Shown here one piece after another: positions 26,924-46,423 of a stretch of 46,448 nt of DNA; the stretch's first letter is position 1; the number at the start of each line of letters is the position of its first letter. The DNA comes from Solirubrobacterales bacterium (GTDB lineage Bacteria > Actinomycetota > Thermoleophilia > Solirubrobacterales > Solirubrobacteraceae). The translations under genes and the position numbers were made by a program. The notes beneath the pieces were generated by a model that worked only from the letters and a program-made list of their open reading frames with translations, had not been told where the DNA came from and did not search any database. The stretch lies in contig PLES01000064.1 of the NCBI GenBank assembly GCA_003137075.1, positions 33,349-79,796 of the forward strand. The letters run 5' to 3'.

Positions 26924-28828
26924 TTACTTCCTCCACGTGACCGTGACGGTCTTTGACTCGACTGTCTTGCCGCCCACCTTGATCACGAACCTGACCTTGA
27001 GCTTTCCGTGCTTCTTCAGCAATGCCGTGCCTGCGCGATTCAGCTTGAGCGTGCGCGTCAGCGACTTGCCGGCCTTGATCGTGCCGTTGCCGCTGAGCAC
27101 CGTCTTCTTGAGCGAGGTGCCGGTGAATGTGTACTTCGCGCAGGCCTTGCCCTTCGCGCAGGAGAGCTTCAGTGTCAGCCGCTTGACGCCGCCTAAGAGC
27201 TCGCTGACCTTCGGAGCTTTGCCTGCGCTGGCCGCACCGCCGTAGACCAAACCGACGTAGGCGTTGCTCGCAAGCGTCTCCTTGGTGTAGTCGGCCGAGA
27301 AGCCGTTGGTCACCGAGCCGAAGGTCCCCGAGGCGCTTCCACCGTTGTAGGTGATGAACGGGAACTCAGTGCCCTTCGCCGGGCTGTAGCCCGACGCGAG
27401 CGTCGGTGCGAGCGTTCCTCCGGCGTTGAACTTGCCGCCGATCGTCAGATTGAATTGGCTAAGGCTGGTCGCGCTTGCGACCTGCGGTGCGATTGTGCCG
27501 CCGTTGGTGAAGGCGCCGCCCTGGACGAGCCAGAGCGAGTTTGCGTCCATGTTGACGGTGCCGTTGTTGGTGGTCGTCGTGCCGGCGGTCTGCTTCAGCG
27601 GACCCCCGGTCAGATTGATCGTGCCACCGCTCTCGTTGACCAGCGTGTCGAGCAGCTGGTTGGCCGAGGTGGCTGAAGTGCCGGCCGCGTACTCCGAGTC
27701 GATCGTTCCGTAGTTGTCGAGCTCGCCGCCGTTCAAGATGCCGTCGGCACCGTTGGTCGCGGGGGTATCGAGAATGATCGTGCCGTAGTTGGCGACGGTT
27801 TGGTTGTTGCTACCGCCGATGTAGAGCGTCGTGCCCGAGCAGCCACCCAGAACGGTGATCGTCTGGCTCGCGGGAACCGTTCCGACAAGCCCACCGGTCG
27901 TGCAATTCGAAACCTCGAAGCTACCTGCGCCCGAGGTGTCGTCCAGCTCTTCGCCGTTGGTTATCTGGACCGGGTTGCCGGTTTCGTTGCCGCCACTCTG
28001 GTACCAGTGCATCGACTGCTGAAGCGTCGCCGTGCCCTGGTTGGCGAAGGTGCCGCCAGCGTCGTTGATGAACTGTGAGCCATCGCCGGCGATCATCGTG
28101 AACGAAGCGCCGGTTGCAATCGAGAGCGTGCTCCTGTTATCGACGATGTACGGCAGGTTGCCTTCGCCTTGGAAGGTCATCTTGCCGGATTGAACCTGGA
28201 GGTTGCCGGTGTTCGTGAAGGTGCCGCCGACGTTAATCGATTCGCCCCAGGTCGGGTCACTTGTGGTGGCGACGATCGTGCCGCCATTGTTGAAAATGGA
28301 TGGCGTACTGGTAGACGTGTCAACGCCCAGGTTCGCCGACCCCCCGGGCTCAATCCCCGTTGCCGCTCCCACCGCGACGTTGCCCGTCGCCTCGAGGTCG
28401 AGTGTTGCTCCGCCGTCAATCGTGAGATTTCCGTCGACATAGAGATTAGTTGCGTTGGAAGGGTTGCCCTGCACTGTGCTTGCGATGCCCTCGACGATCA
28501 CCGTCGCGCCCTGACTGATCGTGAGGTTGTCGGTGACGCCGTTGGAGCCGTTCCCGTAGTACCCCGGCTGCGTCACCGTGGAAAGGGTCACGGTGGTGTT
28601 CGCCGGAATCACGGCGTCGCACTGGGCGCTCGGCTGCCCGTTCGTCCAGTTGTCCCCGCTACCCCACTGGCCGCCGCTGCCGGCGCTGTATGTCGTTGTG
28701 CCCGATTGGCAGTAGGTATTGGGATCGGCCCGTGAAGTGGCCGTGAAGACGAGCAGCATCAGCACGGAACTGATCAAAGCTGCGAGGAGCCGCGGCGCGG
28801 CCGTAGGGCGGATGGCGAAATTTGACAT
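26924..28828 (-). CDS. Secreted beta-helix-like repeat protein with shared C-terminal domain
   Basis: 634 residues from ATG 28828; the longer frame begins before the signal peptide and is not used. The signal peptide spans about 1-34 (RLLAALISSVLMLLVFTATSRA). The body has many NGGT, GTFTNTGN and NYGTI units, typical of right-handed beta-helix surface proteins and adhesins. From about residue 550 a Lys-rich beta domain (LTLKLSCAKGKACAKYTFTG to LLKKHGKLKVRFVIKVGG) closes the chain. That domain looks like the C-terminus of the glutaminase-like protein at 43640. Likely surface-exposed; the ligand is unknown. Confidence 0.8.
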   Translation of the reverse strand: MSNFAIRPTAAPRLLAALISSVLMLLVFTATSRADPNTYCQSGTTTYSAGSGGQWGSGDNWTNGQPSAQCDAVIPANTTVTLSTVTQPGYYGNGSNGVTDNLTISQGATVIVEGIASTVQGNPSNATNLYVDGNLTIDGGATLDLEATGNVAVGAATGIEPGGSANLGVDTSTSTPSIFNNGGTIVATTSDPTWGESINVGGTFTNTGNLQVQSGKMTFQGEGNLPYIVDNRSTLSIATGASFTMIAGDGSQFINDAGGTFANQGTATLQQSMHWYQSGGNETGNPVQITNGEELDDTSGAGSFEVSNCTTGGLVGTVPASQTITVLGGCSGTTLYIGGSNNQTVANYGTIILDTPATNGADGILNGGELDNYGTIDSEYAAGTSATSANQLLDTLVNESGGTINLTGGPLKQTAGTTTTNNGTVNMDANSLWLVQGGAFTNGGTIAPQVASATSLSQFNLTIGGKFNAGGTLAPTLASGYSPAKGTEFPFITYNGGSASGTFGSVTNGFSADYTKETLASNAYVGLVYGGAASAGKAPKVSELLGGVKRLTLKLSCAKGKACAKYTFTGTSLKKTVLSGNGTIKAGKSLTRTLKLNRAGTALLKKHGKLKVRFVIKVGGKTVESKTVTVTWRK

Positions 28829-28997
28829 GAGCACACCGTAAAACGGGGGCGTTAGATGAACGTCACATGGATTCGCGTTGGTCGTCCGCCTGCGAGGGAT
28901 ATTCAACCCTTAAGTCGTGTAACGGACGTGCCGATAGAGGTTCTAAGGCGCCACCCGGCGCCAATCACACAGCCCTATCCAGGATGGAGGCAAACCC

Positions 28998-30146
28998 TTG
29001 ATTCGCACACGACGAGTCGGGCTTGGGGCCTTTGGCCTGCTCAGCGTGCAAAGCGCACGAGCGCCGCGAGCCAAGCGCGAGAAAAATCTCCAAAACGTCA
29101 CCCCGGAAACGACTCCGGTTGAGTCTCAGGGTCTGGACAGCGATCCGCAACGTGATCGCCCGGCGGCGCCACGTGGCGCCGAGATCACTGCGTCGGTGAG
29201 CGTGGTTATTCCGACCCTCAACGAGGTGGAGAGCTTGCCGTGGGTGATAGAGAACCTGCCGTCGTGGGTCTCCGAGCTCGTGATAGTCGACGGTCTCTCG
29301 ACCGACCGCACCGAGACCATGGCACGCAGTCTGCGCCCAGATGTCGTGGTCGTACACCAGTATCAGCGAGGTAAGGGAGCCGCGCTGCGGGCCGGATTCG
29401 CCGCGGCCAGCGGCGACATCGTCGTGATGATCGACGCTGACGGAAGTACAGATCCGCGTGAGATGGGCCGCTTCGTTGAGGCACTTGAGGACGGTGCCGA
29501 CTTCGTCAAGGGCTCACGTCACATGAAGGACGGCGGCTCGGCCGACTTCACGCTGCTGCGCGCGGCCGGCAACAAGGCATTCGTGCTGGCGGCAAACGGG
29601 CTTTACGGCTCCAAGTTCACAGACCTCTGCTACGGCTACTGCGCCTTCTGGCGCAACCACGTGGACAAGCTCGGCCTTACCGCGGACGGCTTCGAGATCG
29701 AGACCCAGCTGGTGCTGGGCGCTCTAAAGGCTGGCCTTGAGATCCGGGAGGTGCCGAGCTTCGAGCTGGAGCGTCGCGCCGGCACCTCAAACCTGAACGC
29801 GGCGCGCGACGGTCTGCGTGTACTTCGCACGATGCTCGGACGCGACGAACGGCGTCCGGACGAAGCGATTCATTTCAGCCTGCGCAAGGTTCACCTGCCG
29901 GTATGGAGCACCGAGGGTGTTCCAGAGGAGGGTGAGCGCCGGAGCGTCGACAGACGCATCAAGAGTCGCGAGCTGACCGGCTACATCGGCCCGGAACGGC
30001 GTAACACCGATGAGCGTCGCGAGAGCGTCGGCACGGTCGTCGCCTACCGTGCCGTTTACGGAAGGCCGCGCCCGCAAGAGGCGCGTGCTTACCGGCCGCT
30101 GACCGCGGCCCAGGGCCCAACGAAGCAAGGCCAAGAAGCTGCATAG
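28998..30146 (+). CDS. Glycosyltransferase family 2, polyprenyl-phosphate type
   Basis: 382 residues from TTG 28998, chosen because GGAGG lies 7 nt upstream. After a basic, probably disordered N-terminus of about 65 residues comes the GT-A domain: VSVVIPTLNEVESLPWVI, VDGLSTDRT, and the metal-binding MIDADGSTDP near residue 145. GYCAFWRNHVDKLGL and FEIETQLVLGALKAG follow, as in dolichol-phosphate mannosyl/glucosyltransferase-like enzymes. No membrane helices follow, so the product would be a cytoplasm-side lipid-linked sugar or glycan. The tail is basic and rich in Arg. It is divergent from the surface repeat protein. Confidence 0.86.
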   Translation: MIRTRRVGLGAFGLLSVQSARAPRAKREKNLQNVTPETTPVESQGLDSDPQRDRPAAPRGAEITASVSVVIPTLNEVESLPWVIENLPSWVSELVIVDGLSTDRTETMARSLRPDVVVVHQYQRGKGAALRAGFAAASGDIVVMIDADGSTDPREMGRFVEALEDGADFVKGSRHMKDGGSADFTLLRAAGNKAFVLAANGLYGSKFTDLCYGYCAFWRNHVDKLGLTADGFEIETQLVLGALKAGLEIREVPSFELERRAGTSNLNAARDGLRVLRTMLGRDERRPDEAIHFSLRKVHLPVWSTEGVPEEGERRSVDRRIKSRELTGYIGPERRNTDERRESVGTVVAYRAVYGRPRPQEARAYRPLTAAQGPTKQGQEAA

Positions 30147-30175
30147 GCTGGCGCGTCAGCCGACGCGCCTTAGCC
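30146..30175. terminator. Bulged hairpin between convergent genes
   Basis: GGCT-GGCGCGTC, loop AGCC, GACGCGCC-TT-AGCC: an 8-bp core stem extended by 4 bp across a two-base bulge. It starts at the last base of the glycosyltransferase stop and lies before the universal stress protein stop, so it can serve both strands. Confidence 0.6.
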
Positions 30176-30215
30176 GCGATATCTGTGGCGCCCCGGCCCC
30201 TTAACGAGCCGGCGT

Positions 30216-30680
30216 CTACCCGTGCCGGTGCGTGATCAGCACGGTGCGGCGCGAATTTGAAGCCACTGCCCGAGCGACGCTGCCGGCCACCGCGCCGGCG
30301 AACTTACCGCGGCTGTGGGAGCCGATCACTATCACGCTCGCGTCGTGCTGATCGGCGACGTCAACGATGCCCCGCCAGATCGGAGATGCCTCGACCGCGA
30401 GGCTCTGTGACCGAAAGCCGGCCGCCTCGGCTCGTTTCGCGCCGGCCGCGGCAGTGAGCTCCGCGGCCCGCTTGACCTCCGGGCTCTCGGCGGCGTTGAG
30501 GTGGGTCCCGGACGGTGGCACGAAACCCAGGTCGAACGGCTGCCAGACGCAGACGACCAGCGCCTCGTGGCTATCGCCGAACAGCTGTCCGGCCTTCTCT
30601 ATCGCGAGGTCGGCAAGCTCGGAGCCGTCGTAGGCGAAGACGACCGGTCCGGCTTCAGGCGTTGGGTTTGTTGAGCTCAT
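30216..30680 (-). CDS. Universal stress protein, UspA family
   Basis: 154 residues, one Usp domain. It begins VVFAYDGSELADLAIEKAG, and the ATP-loop signature is IGSHSRGKFAGAVAGSVARAVA (G-x2-G-x9-G pattern), followed by VLITHR. An intact loop suggests ATP binding. Its ATG overlaps the stop of the upstream MFS transporter (ATGA), so the two are made from one mRNA. Usp proteins respond to starvation, acid or oxidative stress. An ATP-binding cytosolic partner for the transporter is possible. The convergent hairpin at 30146-30175 ends the operon. Confidence 0.9.
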   Translation of the reverse strand: MSSTNPTPEAGPVVFAYDGSELADLAIEKAGQLFGDSHEALVVCVWQPFDLGFVPPSGTHLNAAESPEVKRAAELTAAAGAKRAEAAGFRSQSLAVEASPIWRGIVDVADQHDASVIVIGSHSRGKFAGAVAGSVARAVASNSRRTVLITHRHG

Positions 30681-32167
30681 GAAGGTGCCGGCTCCTCAGC
30701 GGCCGCGATCTTTATGCGCTTGCGACGGACCGCCGCGAGCAGTGGTGGTGATTCCCATGCCGGCGCCTGGCCGGTCAAGAACAGCTCGATATCCGCTTTC
30801 GCGGGACGGGCGCCGCCGAGCGCGTAGAGCAGCACCGCGAACAGGCCCCCGGCGATCGCAAGCCCGGCGCCGATCCAGAGCGCGATACCGGTTCCGGTGA
30901 AGCGGCCATGCCCGACAGTCGCAGCGAAGTGGGCGAAGACCGGCGCGATCATGAACGCCGCCGTGGCTCGCAGCAGTTCGACGATCGCGAAGACCCGCTG
31001 GAGGTTGGCCGCAGGTAGCGAGAAGCCGGCGACGAACAGCGCCGGCGCGACGGTCGCACCGACCCCGATCCCGGTTAGGCCAGACCCGATCAGCGTGAGT
31101 GCCTGGCTCGGCGGCAGCTGGATCCGCAGGACGATGATGCCCGCGGCGAGGAATCCCATACCCACCAGCGGCAGATACTGCAGCGAGCGCCGGGTGATGA
31201 CGACGCCGAGCGCCACCGCGGTGATCACGGCGCCCGCGAACTCCGGCAGATACAGCAGCCCGACGTGCAGCGGCGGGTAGCGCGTAGCCAGCATGCCGGC
31301 TGATAGCTCGGTCGCCGATACCGAGGCGGCAGCGGCGAACAGCGCGAGCACGATGCCGGCGACCGGGATCGTGCTGGTCAACATGCTGCGGATCGTCAGC
31401 AGCGGGCGGCTGCGGGTCGACTGGTTGATGATCAGGGCCACGATCACGAGCAGGCCCGCGAGCAGCGGCACGACGGTGAGCCCGTCGAGGAACTTGTGGG
31501 TCAGCAACTCCGAGGCGCCGAAGAAGGCGGCCGCGCTGCCCAGAGCCGCCAGCAGGATCGCGACCGGGTCTTTCGGAGCACTGATATCGGCGGGTGGCGC
31601 GTCCTCAAAGGTCAGCAGTGAGAGCGTCAGCGCGCTCACCGAGATACCCGCGACGATCCAGAACAGCGGGCGCCACGCATGCGCGCTGGCCTGCAGGCCG
31701 CCGATCATCGGGCCGAGGGCGACCGCCCCGAAGATGCACATGTTCATGATCATCGAGGTGGTGCGCAGGCGCTCCATCGGGAATCCGAGGAACAGCGGCG
31801 GCGCCGCCGAGATCAGCAGCAGGCTCGTGCAGAGTCCCTGGAAAACATGGCCGACGATGAACATCGCGGGGTCCTGGGCAGCGGCGGTGATGATCGAGGC
31901 GAGCACCAGCACCGACGCGTAGAGCACCATCATCCGTCGCTGCGGCAGGAGTTGGGCAAACTGCACCGCAAGCACGGTTCCCACCGCGTAGGCGGCGTTT
32001 GCCATGCCGGTGCCAAGGCTCATCGTCTGCAGGCTCATGTGCAGGCTGTGGGCGATCGTGGGCGTGATCGGCCCGAGCGCGCCTGAGAGCGCCAGGTACG
32101 GGACCAGCGCCAGTACCACCATCGACGAGACTGCGGGATAGCGACCTGCCAGCGGACCCTGCCGCAT
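30677..32167 (-). CDS. MFS transporter, 14-helix DHA2-like
   Basis: 496 residues, with hydrophobic segments consistent with about 14 transmembrane helices. The first is VLALVPYLALSGALGPITPTI and the last is near IALWIGAGLAIAGGLFAVLLY. An MFS A-like loop is weak (QFAQLLPQRRMMVLYAS). The segment GMANAAYAVGTVLAVQF and the helix-5 GPMIGGL pattern fit drug/H+ antiporters. The C-terminal 50 residues are cytoplasmic and basic. An 11-codon ORF ends exactly at its ATG (TGATG), so translation may depend on that leader. The substrate is unknown; pairing with a universal stress protein hints at a stress role. Confidence 0.86.
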   Translation of the reverse strand: MRQGPLAGRYPAVSSMVVLALVPYLALSGALGPITPTIAHSLHMSLQTMSLGTGMANAAYAVGTVLAVQFAQLLPQRRMMVLYASVLVLASIITAAAQDPAMFIVGHVFQGLCTSLLLISAAPPLFLGFPMERLRTTSMIMNMCIFGAVALGPMIGGLQASAHAWRPLFWIVAGISVSALTLSLLTFEDAPPADISAPKDPVAILLAALGSAAAFFGASELLTHKFLDGLTVVPLLAGLLVIVALIINQSTRSRPLLTIRSMLTSTIPVAGIVLALFAAAASVSATELSAGMLATRYPPLHVGLLYLPEFAGAVITAVALGVVITRRSLQYLPLVGMGFLAAGIIVLRIQLPPSQALTLIGSGLTGIGVGATVAPALFVAGFSLPAANLQRVFAIVELLRATAAFMIAPVFAHFAATVGHGRFTGTGIALWIGAGLAIAGGLFAVLLYALGGARPAKADIELFLTGQAPAWESPPLLAAVRRKRIKIAAAEEPAPS

Positions 32168-32202
32168 CAGATCACCGCCAAATTTGCTTCGCGCTGGGCC
32201 AT
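32167..32202 (-). CDS. 11-residue upstream ORF / leader peptide
   Basis: ATG 32202 follows GGAG with a 6-nt gap. It encodes MAQREANLAVI and stops at TGA, whose last base is the A of the transporter ATG (TGATG). The transporter has no good Shine-Dalgarno of its own, so reinitiation from the leader is likely. No obvious stalling motif or run of one amino acid is present. Confidence 0.5.
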   Translation of the reverse strand: MAQREANLAVI

Positions 32203-32317
32203 CGTTCGCTCCGAGGTGAGAGAGGGGAGAGAGGGGCTATGTGGCGGGCGACCCTCGGTCTGGATCAAACCCGGCATTTCGGGAACTCTTGTGCCGCCGA
32301 ATAATCAGACTAGCGCA

Positions 32318-32336
32318 TCCGGAGCCTGCCTCCGGA
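32318..32336 (-). terminator. 7-bp hairpin after the aldo/keto reductase gene
   Basis: TCCGGAG, loop CCTGC, CTCCGGA, 11 nt past the reductase stop. The minus strand continues into an AT-rich stretch (CTGATTATT) some 11 nt later. A 12-bp palindrome, ACCGCTAGCGGT (32344-32355), overlaps the stop codon itself. Confidence 0.45.
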
Positions 32337-32347
32337 AATGGCTACCG

Positions 32348-33346
32348 CTAGCGGTGCTTGACGCCCGCGCGGGCGAACGGCGCGAGCGTCGGAGCCTTCA
32401 CGGGGGTTTCGCCGAGAGCTGCGTCAACGGCTGCGAGGACTTCGGACGAGAGTTCGATGCCGGAGGCGGCAGCGTTCGCATGGACCTGCTCCGGGCGCGA
32501 GGCGCCGATGATCGCCGAGGCGAGTTCGCTGCGCCGCAGCACCCAGGCCAGCGCCAGTTCGACCATCGTCAATCCGGCACCGTCGGCGATCTCGACGAGC
32601 TTCTGCACTGCCGTGACCGTCTCGTCGCTCATGACCAGATGCATGGCGTTGCTCATGCTGGCGCTGGCGGCGCGAGAGTCGCTCGGGGCCGGCTCGCCGG
32701 GCTTGTACTTGCCGCTCAACACCCCTTGGGCCAGCGGCGACCAGACGATCTGGGAAATCCCGTTCGCCTCGCAGAGAGGAAAGACCTCGGCCTCGGGGGC
32801 CTGCCAGAGCATCGAGTACTGCGGCTGTGAGGAGACGAACAGGTCCGGCCCGGCGATGTCGATCGCGGCCTGAATCTGCTCCGGGGTCCATTCGCTGAAG
32901 CCGAGGTAGCGGGCCTTGCCATCGAGCACGACCTGTTGCAGCGCCTCGATCGTCTCCTCGATCGGCACGTCAACGTCGAAGCGGTGTGCCTGGTAGAGGT
33001 CGACGTACTCAACCTGCAGGCGCTCGAGCGAGGCGTCGATCTGCTTGGCGATCTGCGCTGCGGAGAGGCCCTGATCGGCAGGATCATCCGACATCTGGCC
33101 GTTGACCTTGGTCGCCAGGATGTAGGAGTCGCGGGGGTGCTCGGAGAGGATCTGCCCCCAGGCCCGCTCGGCCTCGCCGCGACCGTAGACGTTGGCGGTG
33201 TCGAAGAAGTTGATGCCGGCGTCGAAAGCGGCCTCGGTGCAGGCACGTGTCTGCTGCATCTCGATGCCGCCGGCGTAAGTCAGCCAGGCGCCAAGCGAGA
33301 TCTCCGAGACCTTCAGATCCGAACTGCCGAGGTTGCGGTAGCGCAT
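32348..33346 (-). CDS. Aldo/keto reductase
   Basis: 332 residues, one TIM barrel. The catalytic tetrad is complete: D49 (FFDTANVYG), Y54, K80 (ILATKVNG) and H121 (YQAHRFD). NADPH-binding elements include QPQYSMLW, WSPLAQGVLSGKY and IIGASRPEQV. The sequence is closest in style to the potassium-channel-beta/YghZ group (AKR6/AKR14), which reduces aldehydes and ketones such as methylglyoxal. It is divergent from the MFS exporter at 33531, with a perfect palindrome in the gap, so both may answer one regulator. There is no Shine-Dalgarno worth noting. Confidence 0.93.
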   Translation of the reverse strand: MRYRNLGSSDLKVSEISLGAWLTYAGGIEMQQTRACTEAAFDAGINFFDTANVYGRGEAERAWGQILSEHPRDSYILATKVNGQMSDDPADQGLSAAQIAKQIDASLERLQVEYVDLYQAHRFDVDVPIEETIEALQQVVLDGKARYLGFSEWTPEQIQAAIDIAGPDLFVSSQPQYSMLWQAPEAEVFPLCEANGISQIVWSPLAQGVLSGKYKPGEPAPSDSRAASASMSNAMHLVMSDETVTAVQKLVEIADGAGLTMVELALAWVLRRSELASAIIGASRPEQVHANAAASGIELSSEVLAAVDAALGETPVKAPTLAPFARAGVKHR

Positions 33347-33408
33347 CTAAATCACCGTAGCCGATCACGTATCTCGACCGGCCCCGAGGTACCCGCCTGG
33401 GGGGTCTG

Positions 33409-33438
33409 CGGGCCGTCATCGAGCGCGATGACGGCCCG
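33409..33438. promoter_or_regulatory. 13-bp perfect inverted repeat between divergent genes
   Basis: CGGGCCGTCATCG, AGCG, CGATGACGGCCCG. Both flanking genes point away from it, so it is not a terminator of either. A TetR/MarR-type operator or a leader hairpin is possible. Confidence 0.45.
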
Positions 33439-33530
33439 AGATAGATAGGCTGGCTGTAGATGGATACCGGAAGCCACAACTACTCAGGCTCTCGGGGACC
33501 AGGGGGCGCCGCACCGGCGCAGCGCGTCAG

Positions 33531-34988
33531 GTGAGCGCCCCAGCGGCGCTGGATACGGCGGATCGGTTGAGTTCCCGAGCAGGCGGCGGAGCGCCCGCGA
33601 CTGGCGGGCGCTGGCATCCGTCTGCGGAGGTCGCAGTCGCCATCGCTTACGTAGCGGCGATGTTCATGGCTGGCACCGACATGCAGATCGTGAATGTCGC
33701 GCTGCCGACGCTGAGCCGGGACTTCGCGGCGCCGTTGTCGGAAGTGCAGTGGACAGCTATCGCCTATCTATTGGCCCTCGCCGTGTTGATCCCGGCGTCC
33801 GGCTGGATCGGGGACCGCGTCGGCGTCAAGCAGACGTTCGTGTTCGCAATGGTGCTGTTCACGTTCGCGTCGGCGCTCTGCGGTGCGGTTCATTCGCTCG
33901 GAGAGCTGATCGCCGCGCGTGCCCTGCAGGGGGCAGGCGGCGGGATGATGACTCCTTCCGGCACGGCGATGCTGTACCGCACGTTTGCGCCGGAGCGAAG
34001 GGCGCGGGTGGCGCGAACGGTGATCGTCCCGATCCTGGTCGGTCCCGGGTCGGCGCCGATCCTCGGTGGCGCGCTCACCGAGTGGTTCTCATGGCGGTGG
34101 GTTTTCCTGATCAACCTGCCGGTTGGTGTTGGCGTCGCACTGTTCGCGTGGCGCTTCCTGCCGCGCACACCGCCGACCTCGCGCAATCGTCTCGATGTCT
34201 GCGGGATGCTGCTTTCCGGGCTCGGTCTGAGCTCGCTGCTGTACGCGGTCAGCGAGGGCTCGGCGCTCGGTTGGGGATCGACGCCGGTCGTGATCAGCGG
34301 GCTTGCCGGAGTCGTGCTACTCGCTGCGTTCACGAGCTGGTCGTTGCGTAGCCGTGAACCGATCCTACGCCTGCGGCTGCTCGGTGATCGGCTGTTCCGG
34401 TCGACCAACGTCGTTTTCGCGCTGAGCACCGGCCCGTTCCTCGGCAGTCTCTATCTGACGCCGATCTTTCTGCAGACGATTCTGCACCAGTCGCCGCTGG
34501 AGTCGGGTACCACAACCTTTGTGGAAGCGGTTGGCGTCGGCATTGGCGCACAGACGCTGGGCAGACTCTACCCGCGGTTCGGGCCGCGGCCGCTGGCGAC
34601 GTCAGGTGCCGCTGCGCTCGTTGTCTATCTGTGCGCGTTCCTGCTGATCACGCCGCACACCAGTCTCTGGTTCGTACGCGGGCTGATGCTGTTCGGTGGG
34701 ATTGCCAACAGCGCGACTTTCCTGGCGGTCCAGACGGCGATGTTCACGACCGTCTCGAGCGGCGATACCGGGCACGCCTCAGCGCTCTACAACACTCAGA
34801 GACAGTCGTCGATCGCCTTGAACATCGCCGTGGTCACGACGATCGCGGCCGGTACGACCGATACCAGCATCGCCGCGTTTCACTCCGCATATCTGGCTGC
34901 CGCGGTGATCGCGACGGTCGGCACGGTCTGCGCGCTGACGCTGATCCACACGCGTGACGCGCGTGCGACGATGCGCGTGAAGGCCTGA
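33531..34988 (+). CDS. MFS drug exporter, EmrB/QacA (DHA2) family
   Basis: 485 residues with about 14 membrane helices. Signatures: helix-1 motif TDMQIVNVALPTLSRDF, motif A GWIGDRVGVKQTF, and motif C-like GPGSAPILGGALTEWFSWRW followed by FLINLPVGV. This is the standard DHA2 pattern for proton-driven export of lipophilic compounds. The GTG start has no clear Shine-Dalgarno and the first 35 residues are Ala/Gly-rich and cytosolic. It is divergent from the aldo/keto reductase across 184 bp. The substrate is not predictable. Confidence 0.9.
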   Translation: MSAPAALDTADRLSSRAGGGAPATGGRWHPSAEVAVAIAYVAAMFMAGTDMQIVNVALPTLSRDFAAPLSEVQWTAIAYLLALAVLIPASGWIGDRVGVKQTFVFAMVLFTFASALCGAVHSLGELIAARALQGAGGGMMTPSGTAMLYRTFAPERRARVARTVIVPILVGPGSAPILGGALTEWFSWRWVFLINLPVGVGVALFAWRFLPRTPPTSRNRLDVCGMLLSGLGLSSLLYAVSEGSALGWGSTPVVISGLAGVVLLAAFTSWSLRSREPILRLRLLGDRLFRSTNVVFALSTGPFLGSLYLTPIFLQTILHQSPLESGTTTFVEAVGVGIGAQTLGRLYPRFGPRPLATSGAAALVVYLCAFLLITPHTSLWFVRGLMLFGGIANSATFLAVQTAMFTTVSSGDTGHASALYNTQRQSSIALNIAVVTTIAAGTTDTSIAAFHSAYLAAAVIATVGTVCALTLIHTRDARATMRVKA

Positions 34989-35028
34989 TCCCAGTTAGGC
35001 AGCGTTTTCGGCGTGCCTTGGACTCGCG

Positions 35029-35376: not shown

Positions 35377-35402
35377 CAGCTAAGTGTCCATCAACTAAGT
35401 GT
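35373..35402. repeat. 15-bp tandem duplication at a gene junction
   Basis: CCATCAGCTAAGTGT (35373-35387) is followed directly by CCATCAACTAAGTGT (35388-35402), differing at one base. On the minus strand each copy holds TAG and ATG. One copy contributes the stop codon of the secreted protein and the other the start of the zincin. Confidence 0.7.
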
Positions 35403-35835: not shown

Positions 35836-36007
35836 CGCTGGCCCCTTTCAATTGCCCCTGTCGCCGGCCGGACTGGCGGCGGCACCCATGGGCCAGGATA
35901 GGGAGGCAGGCAAACGCGCGCGGCGGGTTAGACGGAAGACCGATCCGCAGTGACGGCCGCCGTGAGTCGCTCAAGTGCTCGGTGCCTCGCGTCGATACGG
36001 AGTTGAG

Positions 36008-37462: not shown

Positions 37463-37506
37463 ATCTTTCCGGCGGGTTCGATCGCTGAGTCTGGGAGCAT
37501 CTCCGG

Positions 37507-39021: not shown

Positions 39022-39076
39022 GGGACCAACTCCTACCCCAAAGCGCGGAAGCTAACCCGGCTGCGGCGGGCACACG

Positions 39077-39508
39077 CTATCCCCGGTGCTGGGCGGCTTC
39101 TGCCGAGGCCTGCCAGAAGTCGTCGATCTTGACCGCATCGTGGTTGCCCTCGTTGCGGGAGATTGCCCAGATCTCGACAGGCTCGCCGCCCTCGTTGCGA
39201 TGCGAGCGCGGTGTGTGCGGCGCGACCCGGACAGCAGCCGGTGCCCGAACTTCGTGGACCTCGTCCGCGAAGCGCATGGTCAGCGTGCCCTTGGTGATCA
39301 GGTAGATCTCCTCTATCTGGTCGTGATAGTGACCGGTGCCCTGCTCGAAGTCTGAGTGCGGTGGGACGCGGATCATCGTGACGGCGATCTGCTCAGCGCC
39401 GAGCAGTTCGGTGAGCCGGCGGAACTCGCCGGGTACATCGCTGCCGGCGTAGTGGTCGTCCGCCTCGTCAGGGGACACGATCTTGAAAGCGGGGCTGTAA
39501 GCGGTCAT
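39077..39508 (-). CDS. Cupin-domain protein
   Basis: 143 residues, a single cupin barrel. Motif 1 is FEQGTGHYHDQIEEIYLITKG (two His, Glu) and motif 2 is APHTPRSHRNEGG. The region ahead of it is a helical FRRLTELLGAEQIAVTMIRV segment. A GGGTAG element ends 9 nt before the ATG with no Shine-Dalgarno, the same layout as in the stress island, so it may be part of that regulon. A small-molecule binding or simple isomerase role is likely; no metal partner or substrate is certain. It lies upstream of the YbdK-type gene on the same strand, separated by 55 bp. Confidence 0.83.
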   Translation of the reverse strand: MTAYSPAFKIVSPDEADDHYAGSDVPGEFRRLTELLGAEQIAVTMIRVPPHSDFEQGTGHYHDQIEEIYLITKGTLTMRFADEVHEVRAPAAVRVAPHTPRSHRNEGGEPVEIWAISRNEGNHDAVKIDDFWQASAEAAQHRG

Positions 39509-39517
39509 GAGCTTCGG

Positions 39518-39542
39518 CTACCCAGATCCGGGGCGCTCACAC
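39518..39542 (-). promoter_or_regulatory. SigB-type promoter candidate, leaderless geometry
   Basis: On the minus strand: GTGT (one mismatch, 39539-39542), a 15-nt spacer and GGGTAG (39518-39523), 9 nt before the cupin ATG. It is 13 kb outside the stress island. Confidence 0.4.
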
Positions 39543-39682
39543 CCTAACGCTGTCAATCGGTCCCGCGCGCGAAGTCAACCGCGGTAGGGGGGATTTCCCC
39601 ACCAGGTGGGCGGGGGGTGGCGGTCGTCGGACGCCGGTCTGCCTCAGCGAATCGCCGTGCCGGCGTTGGCAGGGTGGTTCTC

Positions 39683-41902
39683 ATGTCAACTTCCACGCTT
39701 CACACACCCTCAGCCGCGGTCGGGATCGCTCGTTTGGTTCGCGCCGCGGCACGCGCATCTGCACGACGACCAAAGCTCGTGATCGTCCTGTGGCTGGCGC
39801 TGATCGTCGGCTGCGGGATCGGCGGCTCGCTCGCCGGAACGCGCTCTCTGTCAAACGCTGATTCTGGCTCTGGCGAGTCTCGTCAGGCAGAGCTCCAACT
39901 CCAGCGGGCCGGTCTGCTCAACAGCTTCAGTGAGAGCCTGATCGTCAGGTCCGGGTCTGCCGCCCGCACAGAACAGGCCGCTCAGGTGGTGAGCGAACGT
40001 GCCCGACACGCTCGCTACGTGGTGTCGGTCGACGCATCCGCGTCCGATCACCCACTGTCACGCGACGGCGGCCGGCTGCAGCTGATCGAGGTCACCCTGC
40101 GCGGCAATCCCGATCAGCAGACTGATCACGTAGTTGCACTCGAGCACGCTGTATCCGGCATGGCTCGAGCCGAGCCCGGCGTATACATCGGTGAGGCAGG
40201 AGACGGCTCCTTCGGCCGCGCGGAGAACCAGACCATCTCCACAGGCATGAGCCACGCCGAACTCGTGGCCTTCCCTATCACCCTGCTGATATTGGTGGCA
40301 GCGTTTGGCGCGCTGGTCGCCGCCTTGGTTCCGCTGATGTTGGGACTGACCTCCGTCGCGGCCGCGATGGGCGCGCTTGGACTGGTATCGCAGATCGCGC
40401 CGAACGGGTCGACGACCTCTTCGGTTGTGATCCTGATCGGGCTCGCGGTCGGCGTCGACTACTCGCTCTTCTATATCCGCCGCGAACGTGCCGAGCGGCT
40501 CGCAGGCGCCGGCCCCGAGGCGGCCTTGGATGCCGCTGCGCAAACGGTGGGCCGGGCGATTCTGATCGCCGGTGCGACCGTGGTGATCGGCCTCGCGGGG
40601 TTGCTGTTCACCGGCAACCCGGTGTTTGTATCGATGGCGCTAGGGGCGATCCTCGTGGTCGCAATCGCGGTACTCGGCTCGTTGACCGTGCTGCCGGCGA
40701 CATTGGCGCTGCTCGGTGACCGGATCAATCGGGGCCGGATCTGGCGCCGCCGGCCATCCAGCACACGCACGAAGGTCCCGGTCTGGGGCCGCGTTGGCGG
40801 TGTTGTGACCAGACGCCCACGGCTATCTCTGCTGGTCGCGCTGGCGTTGATGGCCTGCTTGGCAGCGCCGCTGCTGTCGATCAAGATCGGCAATCCTGGC
40901 AGCGCTGATCTACCGCACGACAACCCGACCGTGGTCGCCCAGCGATCGATCGATAGGGCCTTCCCAGGCGGTCTCGACGTCGCTCAGCTGGTCGTCTCAG
41001 GTCGCCGACTCAAGACAACCGCGGCCCGGGCGCGACTACACGAGCTCGGCAATGAAGGGCAGCGCTTGACCGGCGGCGCCGGCGGCCAGGTGACGGTGGC
41101 GGTTTCGCGCAACGGTGAGACGGCGCTGGTCGGGATCCCCGTGCCCAGCGGCGGCGACGACACGCAGGACCACAACGTCGAGACGCTGCGTGCCGCACTC
41201 AAGCCGGAAACGGCCAAGCTGCTGCCCGGCGCCACCGCGCAGCTGACCGGCGATGACGCCGGCAACGTCGACTTCAACCATCAGATGGCGGTGATGACGC
41301 CGCTGGTGATCGCGTTCGTGCTCGCACTCGCGTTCGTGCTGCTGATCTGCTCGTTCGGCTCACCGCTGCTGGCGGTGTCCGTGATCGCACTCAACCTCGT
41401 CTCGGTGGGCGGCGGGTTTGGCGTCCTGACCGAACTCTTCCAGCACCACTGGGCCGAGTCGCTGTTCGGGCTGCGTTCGTTCGGCGCGATCGTCGACTGG
41501 CTGCCGCTGTTCGCGTTCGTGATCCTGTTCGGACTGTCGATGGACTACACCGTGCTGATTCTGGAGCGTGCTTCAGAGGCACGGAAACGGGGCGCGAGCG
41601 CCGCGCAGGCGGCCGCCGAAGCGCTCGGAGCTACTGGTTCAAGCGTCACCAGCGCGGCACTCGTGATGGTCTGCGTGTTCGCAAGTTTTGCGACCGTACC
41701 GCTGGTCTCGTTCTCGCAGCTCGGCATCGGTTTGGCCGCGGCTATCGCGATCGATGCGACGATCGTGAGGGGCATCGCCCTGCCGGCGATGCTCGCGCTG
41801 TTGGGCGATCGTGGCCTGCGCCCGGCGCGCCGTCACCAAGCCCAAGCGCGGGCATGGGATCATCGCAGCGGTGAGATCGTCTTCGGTGCCAGCGGTGAGT
41901 GA
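39683..41902 (+). CDS. MMPL/RND-family transporter
   Basis: 739 residues from ATG 39683; the longer frame has no support. The order is: one N-terminal membrane helix (PKLVIVLWLALIVGCGIGG), an outer domain, five helices with VDYSLFYIRRERAE, then a second helix, outer domain and helix set with MDYTVLILERASEARKRG. The VDYSLF and MDYTVL motifs are the proton-relay Asp/Tyr pairs of MmpL3-like proteins. The total of about 12 helices and the twofold layout are complete. It probably exports or flips a lipid or lipophilic compound. Its stop overlaps the kinase start by 8 nt, so the three-gene operon is tightly coupled. Confidence 0.92.
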   Translation: MSTSTLHTPSAAVGIARLVRAAARASARRPKLVIVLWLALIVGCGIGGSLAGTRSLSNADSGSGESRQAELQLQRAGLLNSFSESLIVRSGSAARTEQAAQVVSERARHARYVVSVDASASDHPLSRDGGRLQLIEVTLRGNPDQQTDHVVALEHAVSGMARAEPGVYIGEAGDGSFGRAENQTISTGMSHAELVAFPITLLILVAAFGALVAALVPLMLGLTSVAAAMGALGLVSQIAPNGSTTSSVVILIGLAVGVDYSLFYIRRERAERLAGAGPEAALDAAAQTVGRAILIAGATVVIGLAGLLFTGNPVFVSMALGAILVVAIAVLGSLTVLPATLALLGDRINRGRIWRRRPSSTRTKVPVWGRVGGVVTRRPRLSLLVALALMACLAAPLLSIKIGNPGSADLPHDNPTVVAQRSIDRAFPGGLDVAQLVVSGRRLKTTAARARLHELGNEGQRLTGGAGGQVTVAVSRNGETALVGIPVPSGGDDTQDHNVETLRAALKPETAKLLPGATAQLTGDDAGNVDFNHQMAVMTPLVIAFVLALAFVLLICSFGSPLLAVSVIALNLVSVGGGFGVLTELFQHHWAESLFGLRSFGAIVDWLPLFAFVILFGLSMDYTVLILERASEARKRGASAAQAAAEALGATGSSVTSAALVMVCVFASFATVPLVSFSQLGIGLAAAIAIDATIVRGIALPAMLALLGDRGLRPARRHQAQARAWDHRSGEIVFGASGE

Positions 41903-42899
41903 TCGGGGCAAGCCACTTCTGGGGCGGGCGGCCAGCGGGCCGCCCGCCGCTCTGGCAACGCTGCTGCTCGTGATCTGGGCACTCACCGGTGCCGGCTACT
42001 TCTGGCCGATGTGGGCCTGGTTCGGGCTGGGGCTACCACTGTCGTTGGTCGCGGTCAACCGCTGGGTCCGGCGCTTGCCGGAGGCGCGCAACCGCGGTCT
42101 CGCAACGCAGGTGGTCGCCTGCTTCGCGGTGCTGGTGGTTGCAGATGTGCTGATCTGGATCATGTCCGGAGCCGGCTACTTCTGGCCGATCTGGCCGGCG
42201 CTGGTGCTGGTCATGCTGCTCGGTCTGTGGCGTGCGTTCGTGCGGCCACGTGAGCATCAGCTCGAGGTCAGAGTCGACGAGCTGACCCGTACCCGCGCCG
42301 GTGTCGTGGACGTCCAGGCCTCTGAGCTACGCCGGATCGAGCGTGACCTGCACGACGGCGCGCAGGCACGACTGGTCGCGTTGTCGATGCAGATCGGGCG
42401 GGCCGAGGAGCGTCTCGCCGGCAAGGGCGCCGATCCAGCAGACCTGGAACTGCTGCGCCAGGCGCGGCAGGAGGCGACGGCCGCGATCTCCGAACTGCGG
42501 GATCTGGCCCGTGGGATCTCACCTCCGGTGCTCGCCGACCGGGGCCTGCAGGCGGCGGTGCAATCGCTCGCTGACCGCTCGGGGCCGAACGTCAAGTTCC
42601 ATGGCGAGCTCGAGCAGCGTCCGCCGCCGGCACTTGAGAATGCCGCCTATTTCGTGGCCGCGGAGGCGTTGACCAACGCGATCAAACACGCCCCCGGGGT
42701 ACCTGTGCAGATCACGATCTGGCACGAGCATTCGCAGTTGGGTGTCGTCGTCGAGGATCGCGGGCCTGGTGGCGCCGATCCCGCCGGTAGCGGACTGACC
42801 GGGCTGAGCAAACGGGTCGAGGCGCTGGACGGCTGGTTCGAGGTCACAAGCCCGGCGGGCGGGGGAACCACGGTTCGAGCGACCCTACCCAGCGAATGA
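41895..42899 (+). CDS. NarL-type sensor histidine kinase with duplicated membrane sensor
   Basis: About 334 residues from GTG 41895 (GTG 41886 is possible). The N-terminus has four membrane helices arranged as two copies of a two-helix unit, each with AGYFWPMW or AGYFWPIW. A coiled linker leads to the HisKA_3 phosphoacceptor ELRRIERDLHDGAQARLVAL, and the HATPase ends with NAIKHA, DRGPGGADPAG and GGTTVRATL. No large outer domain exists, so it may sense the membrane itself or the MMPL protein. Its ATG-side overlap with MMPL and ATGA overlap with the regulator imply one functional unit. Confidence 0.9.
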   Translation: MSDRGKPLLGRAASGPPAALATLLLVIWALTGAGYFWPMWAWFGLGLPLSLVAVNRWVRRLPEARNRGLATQVVACFAVLVVADVLIWIMSGAGYFWPIWPALVLVMLLGLWRAFVRPREHQLEVRVDELTRTRAGVVDVQASELRRIERDLHDGAQARLVALSMQIGRAEERLAGKGADPADLELLRQARQEATAAISELRDLARGISPPVLADRGLQAAVQSLADRSGPNVKFHGELEQRPPPALENAAYFVAAEALTNAIKHAPGVPVQITIWHEHSQLGVVVEDRGPGGADPAGSGLTGLSKRVEALDGWFEVTSPAGGGTTVRATLPSE

Positions 42900-43594
42900 G
42901 CGCTGACCCCAGCCACGCGATGCACCCGGTGCCGGTGAGGGTCGTGATCGTCGAGGACCACGCGCTGCTGCGCGAAGGGCTTGTCGCGCTGTTGTCCGAG
43001 AACGGGATTGACGTGGTTGCGACGGCTGAGGATGGGCCAGGGCTGCTGCGGATCGTCGCGGGCCACAAGCCGGACCTTGCGATCTGCGACGTGCGGCTGC
43101 CGCCGACCTTCACGGACGAGGGCATCAAAGCTGCGATTGAGGCCCGCAGCCGCCAGCCCTCACTGGCGCTGCTGGTGCTCTCGCAGTACGTGGAGCCGGC
43201 CTACTCGCAGGAGCTGCTCGCCTCGGGTGAGAGTGGAGTCGGCTACATGCTCAAAGAGCGCGTCTCGGAGGTCCGCACGTTCGTCGACGCCGTCCGGCGG
43301 GTCGCCGCGGGCGGTACGGCGCTTGACCGCGAGGTCGTCAGCTCGCTGGTTCGCGAGCACCATCGCGGCGTCCAGGGCAGCACGATCGATTCGCTCACGC
43401 CACGCGAACGTGAGACGCTCGAGCTGATCGCCCAGGGACGAACCAATGCCGCGATCGCGCGCGAACTCGTGGTCTCGCTCGGCGCGGTTGAGAAGCACAT
43501 CTCAAACATCTTCGGCAAGCTTGATCTGCCGGCGACTGACGATGATCATCGCCGAGTGCTTGCGGTGCTCGCCTACCTACGGGCCGCCGGTTAG
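42896..43594 (+). CDS. NarL/FixJ-family response regulator
   Basis: 232 residues. The receiver domain has the acidic pair E20/D21 (VEDHALLREG), phosphoacceptor D65 (AICDVRLPP) and K120 (GYMLKERV). The C-terminal LuxR helix-turn-helix is LTPRERETLELIAQGRTNAAI to VEKHISNIFGKLDL. It starts within the kinase stop (ATGA), so it is the cognate partner. Likely targets are its own MMPL operon and perhaps the glutaminase-like gene 45 bp downstream. No binding site was identified. Confidence 0.93.
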   Translation: MSADPSHAMHPVPVRVVIVEDHALLREGLVALLSENGIDVVATAEDGPGLLRIVAGHKPDLAICDVRLPPTFTDEGIKAAIEARSRQPSLALLVLSQYVEPAYSQELLASGESGVGYMLKERVSEVRTFVDAVRRVAAGGTALDREVVSSLVREHHRGVQGSTIDSLTPRERETLELIAQGRTNAAIARELVVSLGAVEKHISNIFGKLDLPATDDDHRRVLAVLAYLRAAG

Positions 43595-43639
43595 GTCGGC
43601 CAGAGGACTAAAACGTTCCCGGTCCGGGAAGCATGGACT

Positions 43640-46423
43640 ATGGTGAGCAAATTCCGAATGACCGCTGAGCAGGGACGCACGCAGCCGCCACCCCCGCCCG
43701 ACGTGCCCAGTCGCGAGACGGAGAATCTGGGCTTCGGGCCTGTCGACCGGCGCACGCTGCTGAAGCTGGCCGGAGCCGCCGGTCTTGCCGCCCCTGGTCT
43801 CGAAATGCTGCAGGGGCTTACCGGCAACGCAGCGGTCGCCATGGCGGCGACCGGCGGTCGCGGTTCGGCGGCGTCAAATCTGAGCTCGCCAAACGTGACG
43901 CTCGGTGGCGCCGATGTGCGTCCGCCCTCGATACCGCTGGCCGTGCGCTCGCCGTATCTCTCCGCCTGGCTGCCTGCGACCTCGCTGATCGGTGCCACAC
44001 CGCAGTTCTGGAACGGGGCCACCCGGGGGTTTGTGGGCCTGGTCATGATCGACAACGATCTTTATGCCTGGGCGGGTGACCCGACGGTCAACGGCAGTGC
44101 CGTGACCCCGATGACCGCAGTCTCAACCGAGGTGACCGCAACGCGCTCGATCTTCACAGCCAGCGCCGGAGATGTGCAGCTTGTCGCGGAGTGGCTCTCG
44201 CCGGTCGAGCCCGGCAATCTTGAGCTGCAGTCGGTCCCGCTGACGTTGCTGACCGTATCGGTGAGCTTCACCGACGGGAACCCGCACGACGTGCAGGTCT
44301 ATGCCGACATCACCGGTGAGTGGGCCTCGTCGACTGAGAGCGCCTCGATTGAATGGCAGACGAGCTCGGACTCGACCGGCCGCTATTGGGCAGTCGAGCT
44401 CGCTAGCCCCGGTTCTCTGAGCGAGACCGATCAGATGGCCAACTGGGGAACGGTCGTCTGGGCAGCCCCGGTCGGCACTTCGCTCAGCTACCAGTCGGGC
44501 GATTCGGTCACCGTACGCAGCCAGTTCCAGGCGAGCAGCAGCCTGCTCGACACCTCCACTGGGAGCCCGAGCGCCATCAGCGGTACGAATGGCCAGCCGG
44601 TCTTTGCGTACGCCGTCGACTTCGGCTCGAGCGCAGGCTCGACCAGCTTCGTGCTGGGGCATGTGCGCACGCCGCTGATCAGCTACGGCTCCTCACCCGC
44701 GACAGATCTGTTGCCGCTCTGGACGCAGTACTGGACGGCGACGGGGGCACAAGGCTGGCAGGACATGACCGCCGCGTTCATGCTTGGAGCCGCGTCTGCG
44801 CGGCAGCGGGCGATGGCGCTCGACGCGCAGATAGAGGCCGACGCAACCGCCGCCGGAGGCGCGGGTTATGCCGCAGCCTGTGCGCTAGCGCTGCGTCAGT
44901 GCTACGGCGGGACCGAGCTCGCGATCGGACCAGGCGGCGATCCCTGGCTGCTCGGCAAGGAGATCTCCTCCGATGGCGATACGAACACCGTCGACATCTT
45001 CGATCAGGCCTTCCTGGCCTGGCTCTATCTCGATCCTGCCCTGATCCCGCTGGTGATGGCGCCGATCCTCGACTGGTGCTCATCAACTGCCTGGCAGGAC
45101 GCGTCGGCGTGGACCGAGTCGCCTCCGCCGTATTACTGCGTGCACGACCTCGGCGGGTATCCGATGGCGTCCGGACGCGTACCGGGCGCCGGCGAGCAGA
45201 TGCCGATCGAGGAGTCGGCAGGCATGCTGATCATGGCCGCGGCCTACGCGAACGCGGTTGGTCCGACGGTCGCGGAGCCGTTCCTCAGCAAATGGCAGAC
45301 GCTGTGGAGTCAGTGGGCCAACTATCTGGTCACCCAGGTACCGACGCCGGCCGGCCAGCTCACAACCGACGATTGGGTGCCCGCGCAGTACAAGACGCCG
45401 ACGGGCTCCGTGAACCTCGGCATAAAAGCGCTGATCGGGCTGGCGGCTGCCGGCCAGATCGCAACGATCATCGGTGACGCCAACGCCACCACGTGGTCAG
45501 ATGCCGCGACCGACAACGTCGGGCAGTGGATCGACCTCTCGACCGACGTGTCCGCCGGCGACTACCTGAACCTCGCGCAGGGCGCGACCGGTACCTGGTC
45601 GTCGCTCTACAACGCCTACTACGAGATGGTGATCGACATCGCGCTGGTACCGGACCAGGTAGCCGCAGAGCAGGCGAGCTTCTACGCGAGCCAGCTAACG
45701 ACGTACGGAATGCCGCTGCAGACCGGCGCCGGCAACCTCAACAAGGTCGCATGGTTGTTCTACCTCCCGGCCTGGCTCAATAGCTACCCGATAGCCGAGC
45801 AGCTTATGGACCGCAACGTCGCCTATATCGACGACACCAGCTCGCTCGTACCTTACGGCGATCGCTACGACACGAGCACCGGCTTGGAGGTGAACGGCAT
45901 CGAAGCCCACCCGACGCTCGGTGCCGTCTTCGCGCTGCTCGCGGCCGGAGTAACGCTCTCCAGCGGAACGCCCACGGTCGCGCCGCCCGCTGCGCCCGCT
46001 CCCGTGCCGCCGGCTCCGACTCCCGCTCCGGTCGCGGTCGCGATCACGGCGACCGCCAAGCCGAAGCCGACCCTCATCGTCTCAATCGGCGCCGGCGGAC
46101 TGAAGCTCGCCGGTAAAGACGTGAGCATCCATGTCCGTGGCTCGAAGGCCGTCGCCGCCCACGGCACGCTCAAGCTTGTCTACACGCGCGAGGTCACGCT
46201 CAAGAACCACAAGCGCAAGCGTGAGAGCTCCGTGATCGGCTCTGCCAACTACTCACTCGCGGCTGGCGGCTCACGCACGGTGAAGATCAAGCTGACTACC
46301 GCCGGCCTCAAACTCCTGAAGGACGCAAAGAGCCATCGCTTGTCGGTTGTGCTCGACGTCAGCGTGAAGGGTGGCATGTCGACCTCCAAGCGCACGACGA
46401 TCTACGAGCCGCGGGTCCGCTGA
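43640..46423 (+). CDS. Tat-exported glutaminase-A-like protein (DUF5127/DUF4965)
   Basis: 927 residues. Twin-arginine motif RRTLLK (37-42) is followed by a hydrophobic stretch, with an unusually long Pro-rich N-region. RPPSIPLAVRSPYLSAWL and QFWNGATRGFVGLVMIDN are the hallmark of the fungal glutaminase A family. The central part has helical-toroid features: DIFDQAFLAWLYLDPAL, YYCVHDLGGYP and MPIEESAGMLIMAAAYA. A Pro/Ala-rich linker (about 770-800) leads to a Lys-rich beta domain. Glutamine hydrolysis is the activity claimed for fungal members; bacterial ones are mostly untested. GGGAAG lies 8 nt before the ATG. It may be the last gene of the MMPL operon. Confidence 0.85.
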   Translation: MVSKFRMTAEQGRTQPPPPPDVPSRETENLGFGPVDRRTLLKLAGAAGLAAPGLEMLQGLTGNAAVAMAATGGRGSAASNLSSPNVTLGGADVRPPSIPLAVRSPYLSAWLPATSLIGATPQFWNGATRGFVGLVMIDNDLYAWAGDPTVNGSAVTPMTAVSTEVTATRSIFTASAGDVQLVAEWLSPVEPGNLELQSVPLTLLTVSVSFTDGNPHDVQVYADITGEWASSTESASIEWQTSSDSTGRYWAVELASPGSLSETDQMANWGTVVWAAPVGTSLSYQSGDSVTVRSQFQASSSLLDTSTGSPSAISGTNGQPVFAYAVDFGSSAGSTSFVLGHVRTPLISYGSSPATDLLPLWTQYWTATGAQGWQDMTAAFMLGAASARQRAMALDAQIEADATAAGGAGYAAACALALRQCYGGTELAIGPGGDPWLLGKEISSDGDTNTVDIFDQAFLAWLYLDPALIPLVMAPILDWCSSTAWQDASAWTESPPPYYCVHDLGGYPMASGRVPGAGEQMPIEESAGMLIMAAAYANAVGPTVAEPFLSKWQTLWSQWANYLVTQVPTPAGQLTTDDWVPAQYKTPTGSVNLGIKALIGLAAAGQIATIIGDANATTWSDAATDNVGQWIDLSTDVSAGDYLNLAQGATGTWSSLYNAYYEMVIDIALVPDQVAAEQASFYASQLTTYGMPLQTGAGNLNKVAWLFYLPAWLNSYPIAEQLMDRNVAYIDDTSSLVPYGDRYDTSTGLEVNGIEAHPTLGAVFALLAAGVTLSSGTPTVAPPAAPAPVPPAPTPAPVAVAITATAKPKPTLIVSIGAGGLKLAGKDVSIHVRGSKAVAAHGTLKLVYTREVTLKNHKRKRESSVIGSANYSLAAGGSRTVKIKLTTAGLKLLKDAKSHRLSVVLDVSVKGGMSTSKRTTIYEPRVR

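What the first reader, a model, noticed from the sequence alone, without database searches (positions are those of the whole stretch)
26924..46423. A Lys-rich beta domain shared by unrelated secreted proteins
The surface repeat protein (26924-28828) and the glutaminase-like protein (43640-46423) both end in a domain with a G-x-A/G-x-SRTxKxKL-type core, LLK and a final K/V-rich strand. The protein at 18428 has a similar basic end. It may be a common wall or polymer attachment domain of this lineage.
Basis: inference. Interest (0 to 1): 0.52.

Follow-up and report, generated by a model that had tools for sequence, protein, structure and literature searches.

The report
Basic tail domain on exported proteins
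Two unrelated exported proteins in this soil-bacterium genome really do end in the same small, strongly positively charged beta-sandwich domain, part of an uncatalogued family found so far only in its bacterial class, which probably works as a sticky tail that keeps exported proteins on the cell surface; the third protein named has a different tail.

Summary
The shared C-terminal domain is real in two of the three proteins. A profile without any sequence from this genome's five known rows finds it in the repeat protein (E 4e-9) and the glutaminase-like protein (E 4e-13) among 452 window frames; none of 2000 shuffles of either end reaches the real score. The third protein (18428) fails: its end belongs to another basic family with a larger predicted fold.

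The window is from a Solirubrobacterales genome. The ~95-residue domain has 11 copies there, each in a different frame. It was found in 102 of 299 class genomes, and only in class members among 296 phylum genomes. Neither Pfam nor NCBIfam describes it. The predicted fold is Ig-like. Of 73 copies, 66 end within 25 residues of the stop, usually with a K/R tail. Its charge is a median +18 per 100 residues against about -4 for the diverse bodies. A relative of the glutaminase carries a ricin-B lectin in the same slot, so the domain looks like an exchangeable binding module.

Best reading: a lineage-specific, non-covalent electrostatic tether to an anionic envelope or matrix polymer. The tether function is inferred, not shown. 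A C-terminal sorting signal is not excluded.

The parts
26933..27184 (-). Basic Ig-like C-terminal domain (family A2) of the repeat protein; two Cys, short B-C hairpin; followed by RK and the stop
   Evidence: Leave-out profile E 4e-9 to 1.4e-9; envelope; AF2 model pLDDT 87
26924..28828 (-). Carrier 1: signal-peptide-bearing protein with repeated N-G-T type stretches (probably a beta-helix), no Pfam family
   Evidence: ORF; no Pfam family above cut-off; signal-like N-terminus; beta-helix is inference from the sequence
28724..28828 (-). Signal-peptide-like N-terminus of carrier 1 (end approximate)
   Evidence: Hydropathy heuristic
46115..46408 (+). Basic Ig-like C-terminal domain (family A2) of the glutaminase-like protein; lacks the Cys pair; followed by PRVR and the stop
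   Evidence: Leave-out profile E 4e-13 to 7e-14; envelope
45941..46114 (+). Linker between the glutaminase-like body and the domain, with a Pro/Ala-rich stretch
   Evidence: Homology with relatives ends at residue 767 or 758; sequence
44858..45940 (+). GtaA six-hairpin (PF16335) body of carrier 2; PF17168 lies at 44141-44842
   Evidence: Pfam E 9e-83 and 6e-58
43748..43849 (+). Twin-arginine (RRTLLKLAG...) signal-like stretch of carrier 2 (end approximate)
   Evidence: Sequence; Pfam TAT_signal E 0.048, below its cut-off
19715..20131 (+). Basic C-terminal domain of the 18428 protein: a different family (A3), not the shared domain

Best explanation
The shared domain is an exchangeable C-terminal retention module. 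A carrier is exported (Sec, or Tat for the glutaminase-like protein) with an acidic working body, a flexible linker, and at its very end a ~95-residue Ig-like sandwich that usually carries a basic hairpin and a K/R tail. Outside the membrane the domain folds (its Cys pair may form a disulfide) and binds an anionic polymer of the envelope or matrix, non-covalently, through charge plus a fixed surface. This keeps the enzyme or surface protein near the cell. Shown by computation: the shared domain, its terminal place, basicity, linkers, diverse cargo and class restriction in the samples searched. Inferred: the binding, the ligand and the retention.
For: 66 of 73 unique copies end within 25 residues of the stop, one copy per frame. 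In 67 of 67 copies with a body over 150 aa the domain is more basic than the body (medians +18.0 over all 73 copies and -3.6 per 100 aa), and 51 of 66 terminal copies have 3 or more K/R in the last ten residues, against 35 of 269 background genes. 33 of 40 carriers look signal-bearing by a simple heuristic, and none has an LPXTG motif near its end. In a 360-kb sample the seven most basic C-termini of 31 secreted-like proteins all belong to family A2 (5) or A3 (2). Low-complexity linkers precede many copies. The cargo is diverse. The glutaminase body is rare (1 of 199 class genomes); its best relative in the phylum sample has a ricin-B lectin in the same slot and no A2 domain. Its domain groups with those of six He_PIG proteins (92/96), not with the other copy in the window.
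Against: No binding, localisation or ligand data. Five of 73 copies have more than 100 residues after them. The best fold match (GbpA domain 3, Z 8.1) is in the range of common Ig arrangements. The basic hairpin is missing from the window's repeat protein, and the Cys pair from the glutaminase-like protein. A profile built from basic members favours finding basic members. The 73 copies are mostly the best matches per genome, not a random sample.
Confidence: 0.5

Rival explanations
1. A C-terminal sorting signal: a dedicated export or attachment machine of this class recognises the domain and its basic tail, perhaps cleaving it, as type IX secretion does with its Ig-like C-terminal domain.
For: Extreme C-terminal place, one copy per frame, unrelated cargo, class restriction and a basic end. 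Type IX type A CTDs are Ig-like and need conserved lysines in the last 13 residues (PMC10202324 passages). A type IX CTD, mirolase 8qb1, is among the fold matches at Z 7.0.
Against: No hit of the 31 members to a type IX model in the NCBIfam list or the shown Pfam list at E <= 1. Five of 73 copies are followed by more than 100 residues. A ricin-B lectin fills the slot in a relative, which suggests a binding module. No partner machine was looked for.
Confidence: 0.2
2. A plain structural cap or spacer: an Ig-like domain whose charge only aids folding or solubility, with no specific partner.
For: Ig-like folds are common, with middling Z to many unrelated proteins. Many carriers already hold He_PIG, PKD or other Ig-like domains.
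Against: The consistent charge split (67 of 67) and the K/R tails, which other secreted-like proteins in the sample mostly lack (6 of 31 non-carriers have 3 or more K/R in the last ten). The nearly strict terminal place would not be expected of a spacer.
Confidence: 0.18
3. A substrate-binding module for polyanions outside the cell (humic or pectic polymers, DNA, clay), comparable to a carbohydrate-binding module, rather than a tether to the cell's own surface.
For: The ricin-B lectin swap on the glutaminase body; relatives come partly from soil (record titles).
Against: The domain sits on bodies with no known common substrate and in one class only in the samples searched.
Confidence: 0.12

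Closest known systems
Type IX secretion C-terminal domain (type A, PF18962/TIGR04183)
   Same: Extreme C-terminal Ig-like domain on unrelated cargo, lineage-restricted, lysines near the end (PMC10202324 passages); one member, mirolase 8qb1, matches the model at Z 7.0, rmsd 2.8 over 70 residues
   Different: No sequence match seen; Bacteroidota-only in print; the domain here sometimes has further residues after it
GbpA domain 3 (Vibrio cholerae, 2xwx 334-414)
   Same: Best structural match, Z 8.1, rmsd 2.0 over 75 residues; Ig fold, and domains 2 and 3 together bind the bacterial surface (PMC3257281 passages)
   Different: 15% identity and Z in the range of common arrangements; GbpA domain 3 is internal; no homology is claimed
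Non-covalent wall-binding modules of monoderms (LysM, WxL, CWB1, CWB2, SLH, SH3b, PGB1)
   Same: Proposed role: holding exported proteins at the wall; WxL is also C-terminal (PMC5817068 passages)
   Different: None of these families matches any of 37 carriers at E <= 1e-5; different length and sequence
C-terminal ricin-B lectin module on a GtaA-type protein
   Same: Same slot after the same body in a phylum relative (L199)
   Different: Beta-trefoil lectin, unrelated sequence

Membership tests
Type IX secretion type A CTD (PF18962 / TIGR04183) | Matches the family's sequence models | tested here: not met
   No such model among hits of 31 members at E <= 1 in NCBIfam (all 10 families shown) or in the Pfam list (25 of 26 families shown)
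Type IX secretion type A CTD (PF18962 / TIGR04183) | C-terminal Ig-like fold of seven strands | tested here: inconclusive
   Predicted six strands plus a helix; mirolase CTD Z 7.0 among many ties
Type IX secretion type A CTD (PF18962 / TIGR04183) | Type IX core machinery in the same genome | not tested
   Not searched
LPXTG / sortase-anchored proteins | LPXTG, hydrophobic stretch and basic tail at the C-terminus | tested here: not met
   LP.T[GAN] occurs in 6 of 40 carriers and in none near the end. The genome does have one sortase-family gene
Known non-covalent wall-binding families (LysM, WxL, SH3b, PGB1, CWB1, CWB2, SLH) | Pfam match in the carrier | tested here: not met
   37 carriers scanned at E <= 1e-5; 24 families found, none of these
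He_PIG / Big / PKD / fn3 Ig-like families | Pfam match of the domain itself | tested here: not met
   No Pfam family matches more than one of 31 members, best E 0.0034
Family A2 (defined in this report), window proteins 26924-28828 and 43640-46423 | Profile match with the GxAxxxxxAG ... VxLxLNxxGRxLL type core and a closing strand pair at the C-terminus | tested here: met
   Both window proteins; the Cys pair is met in the repeat protein and not in the glutaminase-like one (30 of 31 rows have it)
Family A2 (defined in this report), window protein 18428-20134 | Profile match | tested here: not met

The most novel reading that the evidence does not exclude
The class to which Solirubrobacterales belong (Thermoleophilia) has its own C-terminal sorting and attachment system: exported proteins of any kind are tagged with a basic Ig-like domain (family A2, perhaps also A3), which a dedicated envelope component recognises, as type IX CTDs or WxL domains are. 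Newly acquired enzymes join it by gaining the tag.
Probability: 0.2. Interest if true: 0.72.

Novelty: new member of a known kind. Interest (0 to 1): 0.45.

Why it matters
Little was found in print on how these soil actinobacteria hold proteins on their surface (listings). A profile for this tail marks a set of exported, probably surface-held proteins in many genomes, many without annotation, and gives a small domain that can be expressed and tested at once. The glutaminase case suggests how a rare enzyme may be fitted to the local surface by gaining the lineage's own tail.

Tried and rejected
Single-sequence searches were too weak: 2 of 41 genomes, the own one included, had a match. I then considered whether that protein shares at least the fold: both models end in helix-strand-strand, but the 18428 model is larger (139 against 86 residues; eleven strands of 3 or more residues against six), its best PDB matches are YcnI (Z 10.4) and adhesin or pilin domains, and I saw no chain in both displayed lists. 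I could not superpose the models. An HGTP_anticodon hit on the repeat protein's end (E 0.31) and the other Pfam/NCBIfam hits of the domain are isolated and weak and are taken as chance. A PDB sequence search with the profile gave nothing below E 0.6, and the glutaminase-like protein has no solved relative at E 0.01. No defence-family match for the three proteins. Literature: six searches on the domain, lineage and wall binding listed no description of such a domain; only open-licence PubMed Central is covered. The naming scan with the glutaminase-like protein found nothing; a second scan with a neighbouring protein gave the Solirubrobacterales names. PMC5817068, PMC3257281, PMC10202324 and PMC9957290 were seen as passages only; all other papers as search listings. 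Limits: mostly only the 16 best candidates per genome were scored, so copy counts there are lower bounds. The 360-kb sample uses four contigs partly chosen because they hold known hits, with a home-made gene caller and signal heuristic. The phmmer listing of the window domains failed (empty query) and is not used.

Full report
What was checked. The window lies in a 3.86-Mb genome of 181 contigs.

Is the shared domain real? Pairwise, the two C-termini align at 39% over 54 residues with E 5e-4. With four further copies found in the own genome and a relative I built a small profile, then a larger one of 31 sequences, A2. To avoid circularity, the profile was rebuilt without the two window rows, and again without three other own-genome rows. 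It found the glutaminase-like protein at E 6.8e-14 and 4.1e-13, and the repeat protein at E 1.4e-9 and 4e-9, among 452 window frames; the next best frame is at 0.2 to 0.3. Of 2000 composition-preserving shuffles of each end, 0 reach the real score, so lysine richness alone does not explain it. The 18428 protein scores -0.5 and -0.3 bits, below most of its own shuffles. Its end belongs to a second family, A3, whose profile does not align with A2 (probability 0.9%) and which was found in 7 of 199 class genomes.

What the domain looks like. Features of the 31 rows: a Cys pair near the start (30 of 31 rows; absent in the glutaminase-like protein), a basic hairpin of variable length between the second and third strands (absent in the repeat protein), then VxxGxAxxxxxAG, VxLxLNxxGRxLL and a closing strand pair; acidic residues are almost absent apart from one common Glu. 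AlphaFold2 with the alignment gives a confident model of the repeat protein's copy (86 residues, pLDDT 87, pTM 0.70): four strands, one helix, two strands. Foldseek finds no PDB match at E <= 0.001; VIA-align puts GbpA domain 3 first (Z 8.1, rmsd 2.0 over 75 residues) and many Ig-like domains just below, including the type IX CTD of mirolase (Z 7.0). This is an Ig-like sandwich; Z at this level shows no kinship. The A3 model of the 18428 end (139 residues, pLDDT 92) is larger and matches YcnI (Z 10.4) and adhesin or pilin domains.

Where it occurs. Own genome: 11 matches in 11 different open frames at E <= 0.01, with all 122 candidates scored. Class sample: 102 of 299 genomes at E <= 1e-5. Phylum sample: 11 of 296, all 11 labelled as within the class. 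Among 33 genomes reached through loci with record titles, 4 have it: 3 of the 4 titled Solirubrobacterales and one titled only Actinomycetota; the other 28 (Streptomyces, Gemmatimonadota, Herpetosiphon, proteobacteria and others) have none. No Pfam or NCBIfam family covers it. More distant relatives elsewhere are not excluded, as the profile is built almost wholly from one genus.

How it is used. Of 73 unique copies, all with the stop codon in view, 66 end within 25 residues of it, and none shares its frame with a second copy. The last ten residues hold 3 or more K/R in 51 of the 66 terminal copies, against 35 of 269 background genes. The domain's net charge is +4 to +28 per 100 residues (median +18), while bodies are acidic (median -3.6); the domain is the more basic in 67 of 67 copies with a body over 150 residues. 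By a simple heuristic 33 of 40 carriers have a signal-like N-terminus (one of these is an open-ended fragment and doubtful); of the other seven, several are open-ended fragments or short frames and one is the glutaminase-like protein, which has a twin-arginine stretch instead. Many copies follow Thr-, Gly/Ser- or Pro/Ala-rich linkers. Bodies are diverse: 37 carriers match 24 Pfam models at E <= 1e-5, among them He_PIG (12), PKD (5), propellers, an Agd3 deacetylase and GtaA. In a 360-kb sample of the genome, the seven most basic C-termini among 31 secreted-like proteins of 240 aa or more all belong to A2 (5) or A3 (2) carriers; the eighth most basic is not a carrier. All eight profile hits among 277 called genes are in that set or are the glutaminase-like protein. 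So in this sample strongly basic ends mark these two families rather than the whole secretome.

A natural swap. The glutaminase-like body (PF16335) occurs in 1 of 199 class genomes searched, this one. In the phylum sample 19 of 296 genomes have a match, but only this genome and G484 match the model over its full length. The G484 protein aligns at 38% with residues 93-767 of ours and then carries a ricin-B lectin and no A2 domain; the best plasmid-borne relatives align only up to residue 758. In the domain tree the glutaminase-like protein's copy falls in a seven-row clade (92/96) whose six other members all have He_PIG bodies, while the repeat protein's copy groups with two other repeat proteins (97/90); deeper branches are poorly supported. 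The simplest reading is that a rare, possibly acquired enzyme gained the local tail from a surface protein; the direction is inference.

Mechanism. I judge non-covalent, largely electrostatic retention on an anionic envelope or matrix polymer most likely (0.5). Shown: the module, its place, its charge, its linkers and its presence on diverse bodies. Not shown: binding, ligand, retention. The most novel reading is a class-specific sorting or attachment signal; it resembles type IX CTDs in place, fold class and terminal basic residues (PMC10202324 passages) but shows no sequence match to them, and five of 73 copies are followed by more than 100 residues. The lectin swap favours a binding module.

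Known or new. Six literature searches found no description (open-licence papers only). The listed wall-binding families of monoderms (PMC5817068 passages) do not match the carriers. It is an uncatalogued family of a known kind: C-terminal accessory binding or anchoring modules.

Noticed in passing
window 18428-20134 (+), C-terminal 19715-20131: The end of this protein is a second, unrelated basic C-terminal domain family (A3), lying 0-20 residues from the end of the frame in the 21 copies examined; in 7 of 199 class genomes.
   Followed up: partly
window 43640-46423 (+): A GtaA-type glutaminase-like protein with a twin-arginine stretch, alone among 199 class genomes searched; possibly acquired from another lineage.
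   Followed up: partly
L037:1974-6089 (own genome, contig C106): Two domain carriers lie one after the other in the same frame: a paralogue of the window's repeat protein and a carrier with another body.
   Followed up: no
L051, L056, L058 (C-terminal 120 residues or so): In these three carriers the A2 domain is followed by another Cys-containing C-terminal stretch that they share (SCRGHGCPF / ICHGGGCPF), possibly a third terminal module of this lineage.
   Followed up: no
window 41811-41902: The reading frames of a transporter-like protein and a histidine-kinase-like protein overlap as listed; the downstream start is probably later than the first possible one.
   Followed up: no
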